Below are positions 8,841-17,999 of a stretch of 24,581 nt of DNA, piece after piece (positions within the stretch are counted from its first letter, which is position 1; each line of letters opens with the position of its first letter). The translations under genes and the position numbers were made by a program. The stretch lies in the IMG/VR virus record IMGVR_UViG_3300025853_000622, positions 1 to 24,581 of that record, one strand, 5' to 3'. The notes beneath the pieces were generated by a model that saw only the letters and a list, made by a program, of their open reading frames with translations, ran no database searches and had not been told where the DNA came from. The stretch comes from a virus.

Positions 8841-11269
8841 TGCCTAGAGTCTCAGAACTAAGGACAAATTTTACCGCTGGCGAACTTAGCAAGTTAGTTA
8901 ATGCAAGAGTTGACTTCGGTAGATATTATAACGGAAGTGAGACCGTAGAAAACTTCCTGCCCCTCCCCCAAGGACCATTATTCAGAAGAAAAGGCTTTAA
9001 ATTCATAGCTGAAACTAAAGACTCATCAAAGCAATCCTATCTAGTCGAATTTGAATTTAGCGACAGCCAATCTTACGCAATAGAGATGGGAGAAACCTAT
9101 ATGAGGTTTTTCAAAGATATTGCAAGAGTTTTAGAGAACGAAACAACAATCACAGGCGCAACACAAGCTAACCCTGTTGTTATAACAGATGCTGGACATC
9201 CCTATGCCAACGGAGATGTCATTATTATACAAGATGTAGCTGGAATGACAGAACTCAACGATAAGGAGTTCACAATTGCAAACAAAGCGACAAACACTTA
9301 TGAGCTACAAGGGATAGATGGCACAGGTTACACAGCTTATTCATCTGGCGGAACTTCTTCAAGAATACATGAGGTTGCTACGCCTTACCTAGAAAGCGAA
9401 ATACCTGATGTTAGATATGTGCAAGATTCTGATGTTATGTATTTTGTGCATCCTAACCACCCAATCTACAAACTAACCAGACTTGCGACTAATTCGTTTA
9501 ATTTCTCTGAACTTACTTTACTTAAGGGTCCATTTGTTGCCGAAAATATCGTATCAACCGATTTAGTAGCTTTAACTGGCGGCTCTCCATGGGGTGAAGG
9601 GGATAGTGGAACATTAACAGCAAGTGGCGGCCATACGCCTTTTACCTCTGATCACGTAGGCGGACTATGGAAAATAAGAAGCGGCACAGATATTGCTTTT
9701 CTTAAAATAACCGCCTTCACAAGCTCAACAATAGTTACCGTAGAGTTTCAAGCTGCAATTCCTGCATCTTTACAAACAGGTACTCATTTTACTTGGAGTG
9801 AGGGAGAGTTTAGCGATGCTAGATCACATCCCTCTTGCATTGCTCTACACGAACAAAGAATGATACTTTCTGGCACTTCTTTTAACCCTCGCAAAGTGTT
9901 CTTCTCACAATCAAACGCTGATTATGAAAACTTTGAGGCTGGTACAGAAGACAATGACGCATTTAATATTAAAACTGCTTCCCAAAAAGGTGATATTAAA
10001 TGGCTATTCTCCGATGAGGTCTTGTTTATTGGAACGACTAACGGCATATTTAGAGCTACTAGCTCATCAAATGGATCTGTACTAACACCTAGCGACATCG
10101 ATGTAAAAAGACATATATCTTTCGGCTGCTCAAACATTCCACCTAGATTAGTAGGAAGTTCGCCACTTTATCTTCAAAAAAGCAACAAGAAGATTAGGTC
10201 TATTAATTACAATATTAATAGCGATAAATATGCAGCGCAAGATCTAACTGTTGACGCTAATCATATCACAGGAGATGGTATAGTTCAACTATCATATCAG
10301 CAAGATCCGCTTTCGAATCTATGGGCTGTGCGTAGCGATGGCCAACTAGCCTTGTTAAGTAGTGAGCAAGATCAAGAGGTTTTGGCTTGGTATAGGTTTA
10401 CTACACAAGGTAGTTTTGAGTCCATAGCGGTAATTAACAGCGCAGATGATACTGATGAAAATTACGCTATAGTAAATAGAACAATTGATGGCTCAACTAA
10501 GAGATATGTTGAAGTACAAGATCCTAATTTTTTAGTCTCTAACTTTTATAGAACTTATCTTGATTCATTTTTAACATATAACGGAACTCAATCTATAGTT
10601 TTAACACTAGATTCTTCTAACGCAGAAGCTGCTAGCTCCTTATTCACATCAGATGATATAGGAAAGGAAATTCACGACTTAGACGGAAACGGCAGAGGCT
10701 TGATCACTGCTTATGTTGATGATCAGAATGTCACCTTAGATATACTAGAGCCATTCGCAAATGACAGCCTAACTAATTGGGCTTTTGCAGTAAAAACCAT
10801 AACTGGATTAGACCATTTAGAAGGTGCTACAGTATCTATATGTTCGGATGGAGCGACTATTCCTGACCAAGTAGTCTCTAATGGAGTTGTTACTTTAAAC
10901 CTAGCTGGTGCCATAGTTCATGTAGGTTTATCTTACACCTCTACGCAAAAATCAATGCCTATCGAGGCAAGAGCCTTAGCTCAGACGATAGGATCGACAC
11001 AAAGTAAATTAGATCGAATTGATACAGTTTCTATACGACTTGAGGACACAAACGGTGGCAAAATTATATCTAGTGAAAATACAGTTGTAATTCCTGCAAG
11101 ATCAACTAATAATAACATGAATGAAACACCTCCTCTATTTGAAGGTGACAAAGAAATCAGAACTGGTGGAACTTGGGGAACGATTAGTCAAATTTCAGTT
11201 GTCCAAGATGGGCCACAACCAATGACTATCAAAGGTATAACTTATAAAGTAACGGTAAATGATAAGTAA
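8840..11269 (+). CDS. tail tubular protein B (T7 gp12-like nozzle)
   Basis: Makes the nozzle that closes the tail until DNA is ejected. The 809 residues match the nozzle family, which opens with FTAGELSKLVNARVDFGRYYNGSETVENFLPLPQGPLFRRKG (residues 11-52) and later has HPSCIALHEQRMILSGTSFNPRKVFFSQ. Residues of about 104-173 look like an inserted FCCH-type domain (GATQANPVVITDAGHPYANGD to GIDGTGYTAYSSGGT), which is common in phage tail proteins. A second strand-rich insertion lies near 590-660. It overlaps the next gene by 11 bases. No enzymatic motif is visible. Confidence 0.92.
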   Translation: MPRVSELRTNFTAGELSKLVNARVDFGRYYNGSETVENFLPLPQGPLFRRKGFKFIAETKDSSKQSYLVEFEFSDSQSYAIEMGETYMRFFKDIARVLENETTITGATQANPVVITDAGHPYANGDVIIIQDVAGMTELNDKEFTIANKATNTYELQGIDGTGYTAYSSGGTSSRIHEVATPYLESEIPDVRYVQDSDVMYFVHPNHPIYKLTRLATNSFNFSELTLLKGPFVAENIVSTDLVALTGGSPWGEGDSGTLTASGGHTPFTSDHVGGLWKIRSGTDIAFLKITAFTSSTIVTVEFQAAIPASLQTGTHFTWSEGEFSDARSHPSCIALHEQRMILSGTSFNPRKVFFSQSNADYENFEAGTEDNDAFNIKTASQKGDIKWLFSDEVLFIGTTNGIFRATSSSNGSVLTPSDIDVKRHISFGCSNIPPRLVGSSPLYLQKSNKKIRSINYNINSDKYAAQDLTVDANHITGDGIVQLSYQQDPLSNLWAVRSDGQLALLSSEQDQEVLAWYRFTTQGSFESIAVINSADDTDENYAIVNRTIDGSTKRYVEVQDPNFLVSNFYRTYLDSFLTYNGTQSIVLTLDSSNAEAASSLFTSDDIGKEIHDLDGNGRGLITAYVDDQNVTLDILEPFANDSLTNWAFAVKTITGLDHLEGATVSICSDGATIPDQVVSNGVVTLNLAGAIVHVGLSYTSTQKSMPIEARALAQTIGSTQSKLDRIDTVSIRLEDTNGGKIISSENTVVIPARSTNNNMNETPPLFEGDKEIRTGGTWGTISQISVVQDGPQPMTIKGITYKVTVNDK

Positions 11270-11675
11270 AGAATTTAAGTTAGATCATTTAGACTTGGTT
11301 AATTTTAAGATAAATTATCCTAATTTAAACGAATTAAAAGGCGAAGTATACCCTTTTGACGAGGATAAAGCTTTGACTTATATAAAAGACGACAAGATTA
11401 TATTTTGTTGCGGATTAAAGCTAGTTAGGAGGGGTGTGGCGCATTGCTGGGTGATTCCTAGTGTTTATGTGGATAATTACGCAAAAAGCTTCTACAAAGA
11501 GATTAATAATCTCTTAGAGAGTTATGTAAAAAAAATGAATATTCATCGGGTGCAAACCACAATTACCGATGAGTTCGTGAAGTGGATAGAAATGTTAGGG
11601 TTTGAAAAAGAATCCACATTAAAACAAATGACCTTCGATAAGAAGGATGAATATTTTTATACTAAATTTTATTAA
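11259..11675 (+). CDS. T7 gp13-like / GNAT-like internal virion protein
   Basis: A 138-residue protein. The strand-helix order, with AHCWVIPSVYVDNYAKSFYKEINNLLESYVKKMNIHRVQTTI followed by FVKWIEMLGFEKESTLKQMTFDKKDEYFYTKFY, resembles the acetyltransferase (GNAT)-like fold attributed to T7 gp13, a protein needed for assembling the internal core. The last part 'wie.lGFe.E..l' is a common GNAT C-terminal element. Whether it binds acetyl-CoA cannot be told; a glycine-rich acceptor loop is not evident. It starts inside the end of the nozzle gene and sits first in the internal protein series, like gp13. Confidence 0.7.
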   Translation: MISKEFKLDHLDLVNFKINYPNLNELKGEVYPFDEDKALTYIKDDKIIFCCGLKLVRRGVAHCWVIPSVYVDNYAKSFYKEINNLLESYVKKMNIHRVQTTITDEFVKWIEMLGFEKESTLKQMTFDKKDEYFYTKFY

Positions 11676-11677
11676 TT

Positions 11678-12115
11678 ATGGCAACAGGCGCAGTAATTGG
11701 TGGAGCGGTCTTATCTGGCGGAAGTCAAATATATGGCGGTATTCAAGCTAGAAAAGCAGCAAAAGAACAACAAGCAGCTTTAGACGCTAGGGCAAGACTA
11801 GAAAGAGAATCTGCGGAGTTTGAAGCTATTCAAGCTGGTCGTAAGTTTGATAAGTTGCTAGGTACGCAGAAAGCTAGAATATCTGGAAGCGGCATAATGC
11901 TTGAAGGGTCGCCGATGATGCTAATTGAAGAGACTTTAAGAGATAAAGCGGAAACTATCGCTAACATAAAAAGACATGGACAAGCAAGATCTGATGCTTT
12001 AAAAGCTCAAGCTGGCAACGTTAGAGATGCTGGAAGAGATGCTTTAACCTCTTCTATTATCGGAGCCTTTGGCACTGGATTAAAAACAGCAAGTAAATTT
12101 GGAGGCTCTAAATAA
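11678..12115 (+). CDS. internal virion protein (T7 gp14-like position)
   Basis: A 145-residue protein with a Gly/Ala-rich, small-residue N-terminus (ATGAVIGGAVLSGGSQIYGGIQA) that may insert in membranes, a long charged helix (RKAAKEQQAALDARARLERESAEFEAIQ), and a second amphipathic region ending in SSIIGAFGTGLKTASKFGGSK. In T7, gp14 is the ejected protein that enters the outer membrane; size, composition and location agree. It begins two bases after the previous stop and its own stop overlaps the next ATG as TAATG. Confidence 0.75.
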   Translation: MATGAVIGGAVLSGGSQIYGGIQARKAAKEQQAALDARARLERESAEFEAIQAGRKFDKLLGTQKARISGSGIMLEGSPMMLIEETLRDKAETIANIKRHGQARSDALKAQAGNVRDAGRDALTSSIIGAFGTGLKTASKFGGSK

Positions 12116-13704
12116 TGGTAATGATTCCAAGAAGTCAGGGTGTAACAGTAGGAAAGACAACCGAAACTGGCCTTGCGCCAAAATCTATAGCGCAAACTCA
12201 AATAATACCTAACGCACTAGCTAATCTAGGCGGCACTATTTCATCAATAGGTATTAATAAACTCCAACAAGAACAAGCCGAGCAAAGAAAGGCTCAAGAA
12301 GAGTTTCAAGCGACACAAGCTTTGGATTTTAGAAATAAGCTTAGAGAGTTTGATAATCAAGCAAAAATTAGATTATCTGAATCAGCTAACGATCCAGAGA
12401 TTATAAACGGTGCAAAAGAAAAAATAAGCGAAGAAAGGAAGAATTATTTTGAAGAGTTAAGCGCATCTTACGGTGACGACAAAAGACTCCAAAAGGTTCT
12501 TCAACAAGAATACGAAACCAGTCAGGTAAGCTTAGATTTTAGTGTCGATAAAGAGCTATCTAACAAGAGAAAGACTTATGCAAAGAACGCTCTTTATAGC
12601 ACGGTTTTCGACTTAGAAAATAGGTTTAATAACGCCAAAAGAGAAGAAGATTTAATTCAAGTAAGTCAGGATTTAAGCGACACATTAAATTTAGGTTTAA
12701 AGCAAAACCTTGTGAGTGTAAAGGAGATAAACTCTATTGAAAATAGGATAAGAGAGTCAAGGAAGAGAAAAGAGAAGGTGCAGGCCGATTTACTAGAAAA
12801 GGCTCAAAAACTAAGGTTTAGCGATCCGTGGAAGTTTGTCGATACCTTCGATAAAGAAGATGTGCCAGAAATTGATTTAGTAAACGTTGAAAACTCCGCT
12901 GAGAGCCTAGAAAAAAGAATTGAATTTGTTTCAAAAAAAAGCGAGCAATATCAAATTGATATGCCCCTGCTTAATAAAAATGAATCCGAAGCTTTAATTA
13001 AAACACTAGAATCAGCTACCCCAGAGAATGCAACAGGTTATTTAAATAGTTTAACGAGCAATATCACGGAAGAGCAAAAAGACTTATTAGCTAAAAACAT
13101 ATTTGAAGAAAATAAATCACTTGGTTTAGCGATTACCCTTGCCAATGAGGACGGCAAAACATCTTCGGAAATACTATCTGGTAGTAAAGCTATAAAAAGT
13201 AAAGTGGTTACAATGCCTAGTCCTAATACTATGAGGAATAAGTTCTTAGATATCGCTGGAGACGCTATTGTTCAACAGGATTATAGGGAGGCTTCAATAG
13301 AGGCTATAACAAATATATACGCTCACAAAGCCGTTTCTAATAATATCAATGATACTAACACAGATCAAGAACTAATAGAGAAGTCAATTAAACAAGTTTT
13401 TGGTGATATAATCGAAGTCAACGATTCGAAGGTTGTGGGTTTTAGAAAGAATGACGGTAAATTTATCAGTGAAAGTGAGTTTGAGGATCTTTTTGATGGA
13501 CTAGACAGGGCTACTATTATGAGTGTGCAAGGTGATGTTCCTAGAATAGCTAATGGTAGTGAATTAAGTGAGGATGCCTTAAAAGATGCCCAGCTTGTTG
13601 TCGTGGGTGATGGGCTTTACACTATAAGTTTATATGACGAATTTGCCGTAGATAAACAAGGGAATCCTTTTGTGCTTAACCTTAAAGAAATTTATAACAG
13701 ATAA
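12115..13704 (+). CDS. internal virion protein (T7 gp15-like position)
   Basis: A 529-residue, largely helical protein with coiled-coil stretches (KLQQEQAEQRKAQEEFQATQALDFRNKLREFD; KRKEKVQADLLEKAQKL). The N-terminus IPRSQGVTVGKTTETGLAPKS and the distal helices resemble ejection-core proteins. There is no signal, membrane or enzymatic motif. T7 gp15 is ejected to form part of a trans-envelope channel; the same role is inferred here from order and helical content. It overlaps both neighbours by one base (TAATG), which favours co-translation. ATG at 12115 is preferred, though ATG at 12121 is possible. Confidence 0.75.
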   Translation: MVMIPRSQGVTVGKTTETGLAPKSIAQTQIIPNALANLGGTISSIGINKLQQEQAEQRKAQEEFQATQALDFRNKLREFDNQAKIRLSESANDPEIINGAKEKISEERKNYFEELSASYGDDKRLQKVLQQEYETSQVSLDFSVDKELSNKRKTYAKNALYSTVFDLENRFNNAKREEDLIQVSQDLSDTLNLGLKQNLVSVKEINSIENRIRESRKRKEKVQADLLEKAQKLRFSDPWKFVDTFDKEDVPEIDLVNVENSAESLEKRIEFVSKKSEQYQIDMPLLNKNESEALIKTLESATPENATGYLNSLTSNITEEQKDLLAKNIFEENKSLGLAITLANEDGKTSSEILSGSKAIKSKVVTMPSPNTMRNKFLDIAGDAIVQQDYREASIEAITNIYAHKAVSNNINDTNTDQELIEKSIKQVFGDIIEVNDSKVVGFRKNDGKFISESEFEDLFDGLDRATIMSVQGDVPRIANGSELSEDALKDAQLVVVGDGLYTISLYDEFAVDKQGNPFVLNLKEIYNR

Positions 13705-15554
13705 TGTCTTTAGCTACGTTTATAAAAAAAGAGACAGCCCCAATAGGCAATCAACCAATCCAGCAAGAGCCTTCATCTTTTACAGATGTATTATCTAAGC
13801 AGTTTAGGTCTTTTAGGGATAATTTCATCACAACATCTAGATCAAACCTTATCAACGATCAAAAATCAGAGCGGGCTAAACTGTTCGAGGAAATAGAGGG
13901 TGGAAAATTAGACCCAGCGAGAGCTAGTAATTATAAGCCTTTTGAGGAACCAAGTGCGCAAGCCGTTTTGGAGTTGGGGCCTATTCACATTTCTAACATG
14001 AGGAAGAAGCACGATGAAAAATATATAGAAGATTATATTGCCGAGCTAAAACAAAAAGAGCCTGAGAAATACAAGAATATTTTGACAAAAGAAGAATTAG
14101 AAGACCAAGCGAGGAAAACGGCCAAGTTGTCAAAGTTAGAAGCTCAACAAGCCTCGGCAAGATCTGGTACATTTTCTGGCGTTTCTGCTAATTTATTAGG
14201 TGGTATAGGGGCAGTTGCTACCGATCCTATTAATATTGCTGTACTGCCATTTGGGGCGGCTAGAGGTGCTGGGGTGTTAAGAACAGTTTTAATTGAGGCT
14301 GGAGTTAATGCAACAGCAGAATTGGCAACCCAGCCATTCGTGTCTAAGTGGCAAAAAGAATTGGGCGAAGATTATGGGTTTAAAGAGGTGGTGGAAAATG
14401 TCGGATTTGCCGCTTTATTTGGCGGCTCTATGGCTGGAGCGTTGAAAGGAGCTAAACCGTCTGCTATGCTTATTTATAATAAGATGTCTAAAATTAAAAA
14501 TCTAAAACCTTCTCAAAAGATAGCGGCATCTTATATGTCAAAGGTAGCTCATTTAAAAGAGGCTATGCCGTTCGTTAGAAGTAAAACACTTGTTGAAACC
14601 AAGAAGCATTACGACAGCGTAAAAGCAGCGTCAGAAGCTCTTGAAAATGGAAAAAAAGTGAAGCCTGATGATATTAAAGTCACGGAGTCAGAATTTCTTG
14701 CTTTAGATACAAAGCCAAAAAGAGGCGACACACAAATTGAAAAAGCCAGATTAGCAGAGCTTGAAAGGTTTAAAAAAGATAAAGACCCTTTGGTTTTAGA
14801 AGCCTCTAAATTTGATAATGTTGATGATTTTATAGAATCTGTTCCAATTAAAAAAGGATCTTTAGATGGCGCTATGGGGCATAGACCAACAAAAACAGGT
14901 GCAAACGCTAGTAATATTACACAAGAAGTTTCTGAGATGGGTTTTCCTGATGATTTTTATAAAAATCCTCAATACTACGAGGATATGAGTGATAAATCTG
15001 TCAAAGAATCTTTTAACGCATTAACGAATGTTAAAGGAAGTCCTGATGCGGAGATAACGATTTACAGAGCATCACCAAAAAAAGAATTAAGAACGGGAGA
15101 CTGGGTTACTTTGTCGAAAGAATATGCAAAAGGCGAAAGTTTAGCAGAAGGGGTAAAGGTTCATTCTTTTAAAGTAAAGGCCAAAGAGATAGAGTTTGCA
15201 GGAGATAGTATTAATGAGTTTGGATATTGGGGTCATAACAGTAAAACAAAAGAACAGCTAACAGAAGCATTTAATAAAGCCAAAAAAGAACCAACCCAGA
15301 ATCAACCCAGAGTCAACCCAGAGTCATCCAATAAAGACGTATTAGAACCCGACTTTATGGATAGGTTGTTAGATGAAAGCAACAACCCTCAATTCATACA
15401 AGCTGAAGATATTAATTTTAGAGCATTAGCAGAAGAAAACCCGGACTTGCTAATTTCCTTAGAAGATGGAGAATTTAGGATAGGAGAATTACTAGAAAGA
15501 TTCGATAATGACGAAAACTTTTTAAAGCAAATAACAACTTGTACAATAGGATAA
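13704..15554 (+). CDS. internal virion protein with a possible ADP-ribosyltransferase-like domain
   Basis: A 616-residue member of the ejection-protein series. Residues 150-255 form Gly/Ala-rich helices (SGVSANLLGGIGAVATDPINIAVLPFGAARGAG) typical of internal virion proteins. A distinct region at about 388-515 contains GHRP (392-395), PDDFYKNPQYYEDMSD, DAEITIYRASP (Arg-455), GDWVTLSKEYAKG (467-477), and NEFGYW (Glu-505). The order R, then T-S with Y-A, then E resembles the R-S/T-E signature of ADP-ribosyltransferases; similar GHRP regions occur in other phage proteins from memory. An 11-bp triple repeat follows at 15292-15324. Catalysis is an inference; the structural role is likelier. The start overlaps the preceding stop (TAATG). 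Confidence 0.7.
   Translation: MSLATFIKKETAPIGNQPIQQEPSSFTDVLSKQFRSFRDNFITTSRSNLINDQKSERAKLFEEIEGGKLDPARASNYKPFEEPSAQAVLELGPIHISNMRKKHDEKYIEDYIAELKQKEPEKYKNILTKEELEDQARKTAKLSKLEAQQASARSGTFSGVSANLLGGIGAVATDPINIAVLPFGAARGAGVLRTVLIEAGVNATAELATQPFVSKWQKELGEDYGFKEVVENVGFAALFGGSMAGALKGAKPSAMLIYNKMSKIKNLKPSQKIAASYMSKVAHLKEAMPFVRSKTLVETKKHYDSVKAASEALENGKKVKPDDIKVTESEFLALDTKPKRGDTQIEKARLAELERFKKDKDPLVLEASKFDNVDDFIESVPIKKGSLDGAMGHRPTKTGANASNITQEVSEMGFPDDFYKNPQYYEDMSDKSVKESFNALTNVKGSPDAEITIYRASPKKELRTGDWVTLSKEYAKGESLAEGVKVHSFKVKAKEIEFAGDSINEFGYWGHNSKTKEQLTEAFNKAKKEPTQNQPRVNPESSNKDVLEPDFMDRLLDESNNPQFIQAEDINFRALAEENPDLLISLEDGEFRIGELLERFDNDENFLKQITTCTIG
15292..15324 (+). repeat. three 11-bp tandem repeats inside the internal virion protein gene
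   Basis: The unit CAACCCAGAGT occurs at 15303-15313 and 15314-15324, and the unit CAACCCAGAAT with one change at 15292-15302. Three copies make 33 bases and keep the frame, whereas loss or gain of one unit would shift it. It encodes the linker TQNQPRVNPES between the ART-like region and the C-terminal part of the protein. Confidence 0.85.
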
Positions 15555-17999
15555 ATGTCTTTTATAAAATGTTTACAATCAAAGGTCGATGAAGGCTTGC
15601 TAAGTAAAGGTCAATTAAAAACCCTTGAAAAGAAATTCGAGTCTCAAAAAGAAATATATGCTGACACAATGGGGGACGCTGATGCCGCCAATAAGGCAGC
15701 TTTAGACATAATGACTGCAGAAGCTAATCTGATTGCTGAGAAAAAACGAAATACTATTAAAGCCGCTTTAACACAAAACGCCATCAGAAAAAGTCTATTA
15801 GAAAAAGTTGAAAAAGGACAGGCTTTTGACGCTGCGGTAAGAGATCTGTTAGAGGATTCGTATTTAAGAAAAGGAACTATCCTTAAACAATATTTTGCCA
15901 ATATGGATAAATTCGCTGATGAATACAGAAGTAAATTTGCAGGACTTCACAGGAGGCAGGATGGTATAAGAGATGTTGTTGGTGAGTTGTTAGGCAAAAA
16001 TACAAGCAATGCAGAGGCAAGGCAGTTTGCGACTTCAATAAGAAAAACCTTTGAGCAAGCTAACAAAAGATATAAAAACGCTGGCGGTATAATGGGAGAC
16101 TTAGAAAACTATTTCCCCACAGCTCACAAAAAAGAACTACTAGAAAAAACATCTTTTGAGGATTGGTATAATCACCTAGAGCCGCGACTAGATAAAAGCA
16201 AAATGATAGACCGTGAAACAGGGTTGCCATTTACAAAAGAAAAACTACTTGCTGAGATGAAAGAGGATTACGATGGCATAATAACTAACGGAAGAAGTAA
16301 CATCTTAAGAGACATAGAAGCTGGCAAATCTTCTATTGGGAAATCTAAGGAAATATCAAACAAGAGGATCTCTAGCAGGTTTTACAGATTTAAAGATGCT
16401 GACTCTTTCCTTGAATATAACGACCTCTATGGCGTTGGTGATGATGGTTTATATGACTCTGTTATAAATCACCTCGAATCTTTAGCGAGAGATACAGCTA
16501 TTCTGGAAAAAATGGGGCCAAAACCAAATGCTTTAATGAGAAGTTTAGATTTAGAAATGCTCGCAAGAGACACCAAAGACTTCAAAAGAAAGTGGACTAA
16601 TGGAATGTATCAAGTTTTAAACGGCTATGTTGACTCTTCGGTTGGTGAAGGGTGGCTGTTCAGAACAATTGGCAACACTAAAAACTTACTAAGTGCCGCC
16701 TTACTAGGTGCAGCGCCTATATCAGCTATATCAGACACAGCATTTACAGCGGCAGCGGCTAATATAAATGGATTGTCTGCAACAAAAACACTAAAGAGAT
16801 ACGCAAAACTACTTAACCCGACCAACTCTAAAGATAGAAAATTAGCAAAAAGAAGCGGTTACATTGCTGATATAGCTAGAGGCTCAGCATTAGCAGATGT
16901 CAGGTTTACTGGCGAGAATATGGGCGGCAAGGTGACTGGATGGCTGGCTCAGTTTACAAATAGAGCCAGTGGATTACAGGCGATGACAAAGGCGGCCGCA
17001 GATGCAGCGTCAATGGAGCTAGAAGCTACTCTAGCAGAGCTTGTTTTGGCCAAAACAGATTGGGTTAATATAAATAAGGACTTTAAAGCAGGTTTAAAAC
17101 TTCATAATATCACCAAAGATGACTGGGATATAATAAAGAAGGCTAAAACCTTCTCTCCAGAGGAGGGTGTTAATTTTCTAAGAAGTGAAGACTTGTTAAG
17201 GGTTAAAGGTATTGCAGCAAGTAGACTCTTAGAAGTTGGAAATAAAATTGATGACTTTTCTCAATCTTTAAGAATGATCGCCACCAATGAACCAACCTTA
17301 AGAACAAGGGCAATCAATACTGGAGCTATCTTAAGTGATGACGCAAGAAGAGGGACGGCAGTTAGGGGTTTAGCAGCTACATTCTTGCAATTTAAGTCAT
17401 TCCCTATGACTGTTATGTTTAACCACATGATACCATCTATTAAATCCGCCAAACAAGGAAAATATGGACACGCTGCATACTCCTTCGTTGGAGCTTCTTT
17501 ATTGGGTGGTGGCGCCATGATGTTAAAAGATATAGCCAAAGGCAGAGACCCGCGAGACCCTGAAGATCCTAGATTTTGGGGGGCGGCTATTCTTCAAGGT
17601 GGTGGTTTAGGTATTTTTGGCGATTTCCTTTTTGGCAGGGCTGGTTTAGCTGAGTCCATTGGGGGCCCAGTGGTTGGTTTAGCTGAGGATGCGAGAAACA
17701 CTTTAATTGGCAACTTAGATAAATTGGCTGACGACCCAACATCGGACACGGTAGAAAAAATAAGAAGGGACGCTTTTAACTTAGCTAAAAGAAATATCCC
17801 AGCCTCTACCCTCTGGTATTCTAGGCTAGTTGTCGAAAGGCTTATACTAGATCAATTGGAGGAGATGGTGGACCCTGATTATAAAAAAAGAGTTAGGAGG
17901 TTGGAAAACAGGCTGGAAAGCCAAACTGGACAGCGTTATTTTTGGAGGAAGGGAAAAAGTTCCCCAAGTAGAACTCCAAGAATAACGAATAAAAAATAA
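15555..17999 (+). CDS. large internal virion protein (T7 gp16-like position)
   Basis: An 814-residue protein, the last of the internal virion series. It begins with helical segments (CLQSKVDEGLLSKGQLKTLEKKF; DADAANKAALDIMTAEANLIAEKKRN), has LENYFPTAHKKELLEKTSFEDWYNHLEPRLD in the middle, then Ala/Gly-rich stretches (SAALLGAAPISAISDTAFTAAAA; AAYSFVGASLLGGGAMMLKD) that may enter membrane, and a basic tail. I do not see a lysozyme or transglycosylase N-terminal domain like that of T7 gp16. It is probably ejected with the DNA to complete the envelope-spanning channel. The start follows the preceding stop directly (TAAATG). Confidence 0.75.
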   Translation: MSFIKCLQSKVDEGLLSKGQLKTLEKKFESQKEIYADTMGDADAANKAALDIMTAEANLIAEKKRNTIKAALTQNAIRKSLLEKVEKGQAFDAAVRDLLEDSYLRKGTILKQYFANMDKFADEYRSKFAGLHRRQDGIRDVVGELLGKNTSNAEARQFATSIRKTFEQANKRYKNAGGIMGDLENYFPTAHKKELLEKTSFEDWYNHLEPRLDKSKMIDRETGLPFTKEKLLAEMKEDYDGIITNGRSNILRDIEAGKSSIGKSKEISNKRISSRFYRFKDADSFLEYNDLYGVGDDGLYDSVINHLESLARDTAILEKMGPKPNALMRSLDLEMLARDTKDFKRKWTNGMYQVLNGYVDSSVGEGWLFRTIGNTKNLLSAALLGAAPISAISDTAFTAAAANINGLSATKTLKRYAKLLNPTNSKDRKLAKRSGYIADIARGSALADVRFTGENMGGKVTGWLAQFTNRASGLQAMTKAAADAASMELEATLAELVLAKTDWVNINKDFKAGLKLHNITKDDWDIIKKAKTFSPEEGVNFLRSEDLLRVKGIAASRLLEVGNKIDDFSQSLRMIATNEPTLRTRAINTGAILSDDARRGTAVRGLAATFLQFKSFPMTVMFNHMIPSIKSAKQGKYGHAAYSFVGASLLGGGAMMLKDIAKGRDPRDPEDPRFWGAAILQGGGLGIFGDFLFGRAGLAESIGGPVVGLAEDARNTLIGNLDKLADDPTSDTVEKIRRDAFNLAKRNIPASTLWYSRLVVERLILDQLEEMVDPDYKKRVRRLENRLESQTGQRYFWRKGKSSPSRTPRITNKK

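What the first reader, a model, noticed from the sequence alone, without database searches (positions are those of the whole stretch)
14865..15248. Ejected virion protein carries an ADP-ribosyltransferase-like region
Within the internal virion protein, residues 388-515 look unlike the rest: GHRP, then ITIYRAS (Arg-455), WVTLSKEYA (467-475) and NEFGYW (Glu-505). The order Arg, Thr/Ser-Tyr-Ala, Glu is that of ADP-ribosyltransferase signatures. Internal proteins of T7-type phages enter the host with or before the DNA, so an enzymatic domain here would act at once on infection, as Alt of T4 does. The motifs are seen; the fold, activity and ejection of this part are inference.
Basis: partly seen in the sequence, partly recalled or inferred. 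Interest (0 to 1): 0.6.

Follow-up and report, generated by a model that had tools for sequence, protein, structure and literature searches.

The report
Enzyme-like module in phage ejection protein
A short-tailed phage's DNA-injection protein carries a swappable module of about 125 residues whose conserved residues and predicted fold resemble, without proving, an ADP-ribosyltransferase, an enzyme type some phages inject to hijack the host; the same module turns up in many unrelated phages.

Summary
Residues 388-516 of the 616-aa protein (14865-15251) form a discrete domain shared with hundreds of phage proteins but absent from Pfam. In 71 non-redundant homologues Arg455 and Glu505 are invariant (71/71); the position of Thr469 is T/S in 70/71 and that of Ser471 is S/T in 67/71. 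AlphaFold2 folds it confidently (pLDDT 90-94). Fold and profile tests point to the R-S-E clade of ADP-ribosyltransferases (ARTs), but none is individually significant. In Foldseek, 9 of 49 PDB matches are ARTs, including rank 1, all with E>0.1. hhalign to the T4 Mod family scores 24.4, against at most 21.2 in 400 shuffles, Arg strands in register; its probability is only 7%. The ExE/QxE motif is missing. The carrier resembles the T7 gp16 ejection protein; by T7 topology the module would face the host cytoplasm. In a sister phage the same module (88% DNA identity) sits in a different gp16-like backbone. Elsewhere it is fused to lysozyme, zeta toxin, LPD38 or ART-PolyVal domains, or stands alone. 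Best reading: an injected, compact ART-like effector module, unnamed in Pfam and labelled 'ParB C-terminal domain' in PHROGs. Activity, target and ejection are inferred.

The parts
13704..15554 (+). 616-aa gp16-like internal (ejection) protein that carries the module
   Evidence: phrog_342 'internal virion protein with endolysin domain' matches aa 118-418, E=4e-8; N-terminal part 27% identical to the L007 carrier; late podovirus gene order around it
14190..14444 (+). hydrophobic stretches aa 163-247, candidate counterpart of T7 gp16 first membrane region
   Evidence: Kyte-Doolittle peaks at 163-197 and 229-247; similar peaks upstream of the module in L002 and L007; T7 gp16 TMH I is residues 243-410 (PMC8954989)
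14799..15274 (+). mobile module: DNA segment 88% identical to the sister phage L002, where it lies in a different gp16-like backbone
   Evidence: blastn: 88.0% over 476 bp, against 77-81% in the shared tail and internal-protein genes and no match in the rest of the carrier gene
14865..15251 (+). ART-like domain, aa 388-516
   Evidence: alignments A1-A3; AF2 pLDDT 89.7 for the window and 93.9 for homologue L045
14880..14882 (+). His393, conserved in 69/71
15066..15068 (+). Arg455, 71/71, on the TIYRA strand; putative NAD-binding Arg
   Evidence: aligned with the Arg strand of the T4 Mod family
15099..15101 (+). Asp466 of GDWV, 71/71
15108..15116 (+). Thr469-Leu-Ser471, [ST]x[ST] motif (STS-like) before the YA helix
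   Evidence: T/S 70/71 and S/T 67/71; strand then helix in the model
15216..15218 (+). Glu505, 71/71; putative catalytic Glu. Residue E-2 is hydrophobic, so there is no ExE/QxE
15261..15551 (+). C-terminal tail, aa 520-616, after the module
   Evidence: not part of the conserved domain
15555..17999 (+). 814-aa virion protein directly downstream, possible remainder of a split gp16-like protein
   Evidence: phrog_684 E=3e-139; homologue next to the L007 carrier, 28% over 857 columns
12115..13704 (+). 529-aa upstream virion protein, gp15-like by position
   Evidence: phrog_992 'head protein' E=1e-24
11678..12115 (+). 145-aa internal virion protein, gp14-like
   Evidence: phrog_418 E=3e-19

Best explanation
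Residues about 365-525 of the gp16-like internal virion protein are a mobile effector module: a compact ADP-ribosyltransferase-fold enzyme of the R-S-E type (Arg455; Thr469/Ser471; Glu505) lacking the classical E/QxE pair. The carrier would be ejected with the phage DNA, cross the inner membrane with its hydrophobic region, and expose the module to the host cytoplasm. There it would use NAD+ to ADP-ribosylate a host macromolecule, or else hydrolyse NAD, at the very start of infection, by analogy with T4 Alt. Shown: a discrete, conserved, mobile domain with enzyme-like invariant residues in a gp16-like virion protein. Inferred: ART fold (weak but convergent evidence), catalysis, target, ejection and cytoplasmic exposure.
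For: Invariant Arg and Glu and near-invariant [ST]x[ST] in 71 diverse homologues. Confident AF2 models with Arg strand, [ST]x[ST] strand, helix, strands, Glu. Foldseek PDB with the trimmed homologue: rank 1 is Vis ART (highest probability, 0.25), and CTA1, ExoS, ART2.2 and RES bring ART-superfamily chains to 9 of 49 matches; with the window model KptA/Tpt1, also an ART-superfamily enzyme, recurs in the list. hhalign to the T4 ModA/ModB family: score 24.4, pairwise E=0.005, catalytic Arg strands in register; 0 of 400 column shuffles reach it (max 21.2), nine unrelated real families score at most 16.1, T4 Alt against Mod 19.7. The module is fused to canonical ART-PolyVal (L014; L181), zeta toxin and lysozyme, LPD38 and gp16-like backbones, and is swapped between backbones of sister phages. 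T7 gp16-C after TMH I is thought to be cytoplasmic (PMC8954989). ARTs are the commonest protein-modifying domains of injected phage polyvalent proteins (PMC5512222).
Against: No PDB fold match with E<0.1; TM about 0.3 and large rmsd. hhalign probability is only 7% and the confident part covers 27 columns. No Pfam or PDB sequence-profile hit; no match to a second R-S-E-looking domain from L004 (only two sequences). E-2 position hydrophobic in essentially all members. Catalytic cluster geometry not measured. No virion proteomics.
Confidence: 0.66

Rival explanations
1. ART fold, but the enzyme destroys or phosphorolyses NAD (as RES toxins do) or modifies nucleic acid or nucleotides rather than protein; the effect would be NAD depletion or blocking of a host defence signal.
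For: The E-2 position is I/L/V rather than E/Q, unlike classical arginine- or asparagine-specific transferases; RES chains are among the Foldseek matches; phage ARTs include NADases, phosphorylases and nucleic-acid modifiers (PMC9503650).
Against: RES catalytic residues differ from R-S-E (PMC9503650). No target information either way.
Confidence: 0.25
2. A new enzyme fold with its own Arg/Asp/Ser/Glu (plus His393) active site; resemblance to ART signatures is convergent.
For: No significant fold or profile match to any ART. Additional near-invariant residues (His393, Asp466, Pro447) are not ART hallmarks.
Against: ART enrichment in the fold list, Arg-in-register hhalign score above all shuffles, and the order of motifs and secondary structure.
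Confidence: 0.22
3. A non-enzymatic structural or docking domain used inside ejection proteins.
For: It sits in virion proteins and is often internal in the ORF (77 of 158 ORFs).
Against: Invariant polar residues; stand-alone 129-aa protein in a mycobacteriophage non-structural region and next to DNA-replication genes in a Vibrio T4-like phage; many unrelated fusion partners.
Confidence: 0.06
4. A ParB C-terminal (DNA-binding or partition) domain, as PHROGs and RefSeq label it.
For: phrog_2579 is called 'ParB C-terminal domain' and all 53 members of A2 match it.
Against: The match is only to the last 130 of 472 profile positions; Myrna gp78 and Pumpkin gp129, which bear the label, show no ParB Pfam domain; the 129-aa stand-alone protein has no room for a ParB core.
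Confidence: 0.03

Closest known systems
T4 Alt / ModA / ModB (R-S-E clade phage ARTs)
   Same: YR[GA] strand, then S/T motif with following helix, then invariant Glu; hhalign aligns the Arg strands. Alt is packaged and injected, as proposed here.
   Different: About 125 rather than about 200 residues or more; no ExE/QxE; fused into a gp16-like ejection protein; sequence similarity marginal.
ART-PolyVal (PF18760), HYD-type ARTs of phage polyvalent proteins
   Same: Same kind of delivery context; found in the same polypeptide in L014 and L181.
   Different: H-Y-D active site by Iyer et al.; the window domain does not match PF18760.
phrog_2579 'ParB C-terminal domain' (mycobacteriophage Pumpkin gp129, Myrna gp78, Gordonia and Vibrio phages)
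   Same: Same domain family: all 53 members match.
   Different: The label appears wrong; no ParB domain found in the labelled proteins tested, and no function is assigned.
T7 gp16 / phrog_342 ejection protein
   Same: Carrier backbone aa 118-418, and in L002 aa 55-498 with E=3e-43; hydrophobic region before the module.
   Different: No N-terminal transglycosylase detected; gene split from an 814-aa downstream partner; extra ART-like module.

Membership tests
ADP-ribosyltransferase superfamily, R-S-E clade | Conserved Arg on the first core strand | tested here: met
   Arg455 71/71 on a predicted strand; in register with the T4 Mod Arg strand
ADP-ribosyltransferase superfamily, R-S-E clade | STS-like motif on the second strand, followed by a helix | tested here: met
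   [ST]x[ST] in 70/71 and 67/71; strand then helix in both models
ADP-ribosyltransferase superfamily, R-S-E clade | Invariant catalytic Glu at a late strand | tested here: met
   Glu505 71/71, directly before a strand
ADP-ribosyltransferase superfamily, R-S-E clade | ExE or QxE in classical protein mono-ARTs | tested here: not met
   Position E-2 is I/L/V in 69/71
ADP-ribosyltransferase superfamily, R-S-E clade | ART split beta-sheet fold | tested here: inconclusive
   9/49 Foldseek PDB matches are ARTs, rank 1 included, but best E=0.17 and TM about 0.3; earlier model weaker
ADP-ribosyltransferase superfamily, R-S-E clade | Arg, Ser and Glu cluster in an NAD cleft | not testable with these tools
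   Model coordinates are not released to the scripts
ADP-ribosyltransferase superfamily, R-S-E clade | NAD-dependent catalysis | not testable with these tools
   Needs a bench assay
ART-PolyVal (PF18760) | Match above the Pfam cut-off; H-Y-D active site | tested here: not met
   No match
T7 gp16-type ejection protein (carrier) | Sequence homology to the gp16 family | tested here: met
   phrog_342 E=4e-8 for the window and 3e-43 for the sister carrier
T7 gp16-type ejection protein (carrier) | Located after gp14/gp15-like genes in the late operon | tested here: met
   Order TerL, head-tail adaptor, MCP, tail proteins, internal virion proteins, carrier
T7 gp16-type ejection protein (carrier) | Packaged and ejected into the host | not testable with these tools
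   By analogy with T7 only
ParB C-terminal domain | ParB core in the same protein | tested here: not met
   No ParB Pfam domain in the window protein, Myrna gp78 or Pumpkin gp129

The most novel reading that the evidence does not exclude
A previously unnamed clade of minimal (about 115-130 aa) R-S-E ARTs without ExE/QxE, carried as an exchangeable effector in gp16-type ejectosome proteins, so that the DNA-injection channel itself delivers an NAD-using enzyme into the host cytoplasm, and also circulating in polyvalent proteins and as stand-alone genes of mycobacteriophages.
Probability: 0.5. Interest if true: 0.72.

Novelty: new variant of a known kind. Interest (0 to 1): 0.58.

Why it matters
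ARTs were recorded in only about 3% of podoviruses by an earlier sequence survey (PMC9503650). A divergent ART-like family found in at least 245 viral contigs and missed by Pfam would add to the set of injected host-modifying enzymes, show that ejection-channel proteins can carry effector modules, and correct a misleading 'ParB' label on many actinobacteriophage genes. Pumpkin gp129 (129 aa, phage of the laboratory host M. smegmatis mc2 155) offers a small, testable member.

Tried and rejected
Pfam and NCBIfam scans of the domain and Pfam scans of 53 members: no family. Profile searches of PDB sequences with A1, A2 and A3: only chance hits or none. hhalign against the R-S-E-looking domain of L004: no signal, but only two sequences and no further relatives found, so uninformative. 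PF03496 search in 101 genomes plus controls rang nowhere, uninformative. LPD23 hit in L181 lies outside the domain. A T4 ModB scan of viral contigs gave only copies at 95% identity or more, so the Mod alignment was built from annotated phages instead. The search for relatives of the 814-aa downstream protein, to see the slot without the module, found only the same phage. Literature searches found no description of this domain.

Full report
Observation. Residues 388-516 are a discrete domain: BLAST and tblastn hits in other phages cover this stretch and little else, and phrog_2579 matches exactly aa 390-517.

Family. A scan of viral contigs with a 10-sequence alignment gave 245 relatives, of which 80 were kept, and a second query 58 loci. 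Bacterial genomes hold few: four loci in the GTDB scan and one of 101 genomes of one phylum, the seed genome itself; the pattern-based scan is not exhaustive. In 71 non-redundant members (A3) Pro447, Arg455, Asp466, Ala475 and Glu505 are invariant, and Tyr454, Thr/Ser469, Ser/Thr471, Tyr474 and His393 nearly so. Invariant polar residues in such a divergent set are what an active site gives. L014 is the odd one out: it keeps Arg but has lost the [ST]x[ST] stretch and the Glu.

Fold. AlphaFold2 with the family alignments gave pLDDT 89.7 and pTM 0.81 for the window domain, and pLDDT 93.9 and pTM 0.87 for homologue L045. The order is helix, strand with Arg, short strand with [ST]x[ST], helix with Tyr-Ala, long strand, short strand, Glu and strand: the order of R-S-E ARTs. 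Foldseek against PDB gives no significant match. With the compact model the best match by E-value and probability is the ART Vis (E=0.17, probability 0.25); cholera toxin A1, ExoS (four chains), ART2.2 and RES (two chains) bring ARTs to 9 of 49 listed chains. Alignments are poor (TM about 0.3, rmsd above 5 A), so this is a hint, not proof. The first, longer model gave mainly unrelated matches, with KptA/Tpt1 (ART superfamily) recurring at low probability and a CNFy fragment at 0.21 whose matching region I did not verify. Against BFVD, family members from mycobacterial, Gordonia and uncultured phages match with TM of about 0.5-0.78, which confirms family membership only.

Profile test. Against an alignment of eight T4 ModA/ModB-type ARTs (A5), hhalign gives score 24.4, pairwise E=0.005, probability 7%, aligning the TIYRA strand with the catalytic LYRG strand. 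None of 400 column-shuffled controls reaches it (mean 12.1, max 21.2); nine unrelated phage families reach at most 16.1; T4 Alt as a single sequence against Mod gives 19.7. The signal is above controls but short.

Departure from the classical pattern. Two residues before Glu505, where classical R-S-E transferases have E or Q, this family has I/L/V in 69 of 71. Either the target differs, or the enzyme is closer to an NAD-consuming type.

Carrier and delivery. The late genes run TerL, head-tail adaptor, scaffold/protease, major head protein, tail proteins, internal virion proteins, carrier, 814-aa virion protein, tail fibre, a T7-like order. The carrier matches the gp16-type family phrog_342 over aa 118-418, at profile positions 271-456 of 1235. 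In T7 gp16, TMH I is residues 243-410 and the part after it is thought to lie in the host cytoplasm (PMC8954989). Hydrophobic stretches at aa 163-247 precede the module, as in L002 and L007. By this analogy the module faces the cytoplasm, where NAD is. Packaging and ejection were not tested.

Mobility. L002 is a sister phage, 77-81% identical in DNA up to about 12.56 kb. Its carrier backbone is another gp16-like protein (phrog_342, E=3e-43) with no detectable DNA similarity to that of the window, yet it contains the module at 88% DNA identity with sharp limits, 14799-15274. Elsewhere the module is joined to lysozyme (L006), zeta toxin (L007), ART-PolyVal (L014, L181), LPD38 (L027, L089), a metallopeptidase family (L101) and a UvrD-like helicase segment (L096), or stands alone (Pumpkin gp129; Vibrio phage L103). 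In L181 it lies in a P22-like virion gene block. This is the behaviour of effector domains of polyvalent proteins (PMC5512222).

Verdict. An exchangeable, probably enzymatic module with ART-like signatures in an ejection protein. Works like an injected ART: likely. Member of the R-S-E ART clade: probable, with the ExE/QxE feature tested and not met and fold significance not reached. I therefore call it ART-like rather than an established ART. The 'ParB C-terminal domain' label in PHROGs and RefSeq is not supported by the proteins tested.

Noticed in passing
window 15552-15557: The carrier gene ends with TAA immediately followed by an in-frame ATG of the 814-aa virion protein; together the two are about the size of T7 gp16, suggesting a split gp16 (or a stop that could be read through).
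   Followed up: partly
window 11259-11675: 138-aa protein matching phrog_308 'internal virion protein' and phrog_4177, between the tail protein and the gp14-like gene; no Pfam family.
   Followed up: no
L004:4203-9410: 1736-aa phage protein with at least two copies of a domain that looks like a canonical R-S-E ART (YRG ... SSWTS ... GEQE) but has no Pfam match and no relatives found, plus one copy of the present module.
   Followed up: partly
L007:6525-9683: Gp16-like protein with the present module followed by a zeta-toxin kinase domain (E=1.7e-31): a second effector type in the same ejection protein.
   Followed up: no
phrog_2579; L102 (Pumpkin gp129), L183 (Myrna gp78): Many actinobacteriophage genes labelled 'ParB C-terminal domain' are this module; no ParB Pfam domain was found in the two tested, so the label seems wrong.
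   Followed up: partly
L014:332-2359: Copy that keeps the Arg strand but has lost the [ST]x[ST] motif and Glu, beside an ART-PolyVal match: probably a decayed module.
   Followed up: no
L103:3968-4621: Stand-alone 217-aa version in a Vibrio T4-like phage with a long insert between the Arg strand and GDWVSLS.
   Followed up: no
L181:4674-6713: P22-like environmental phage: protein annotated 'DNA repair protein' in the virion gene block carries the module plus ART-PolyVal (two stretches).
   Followed up: partly
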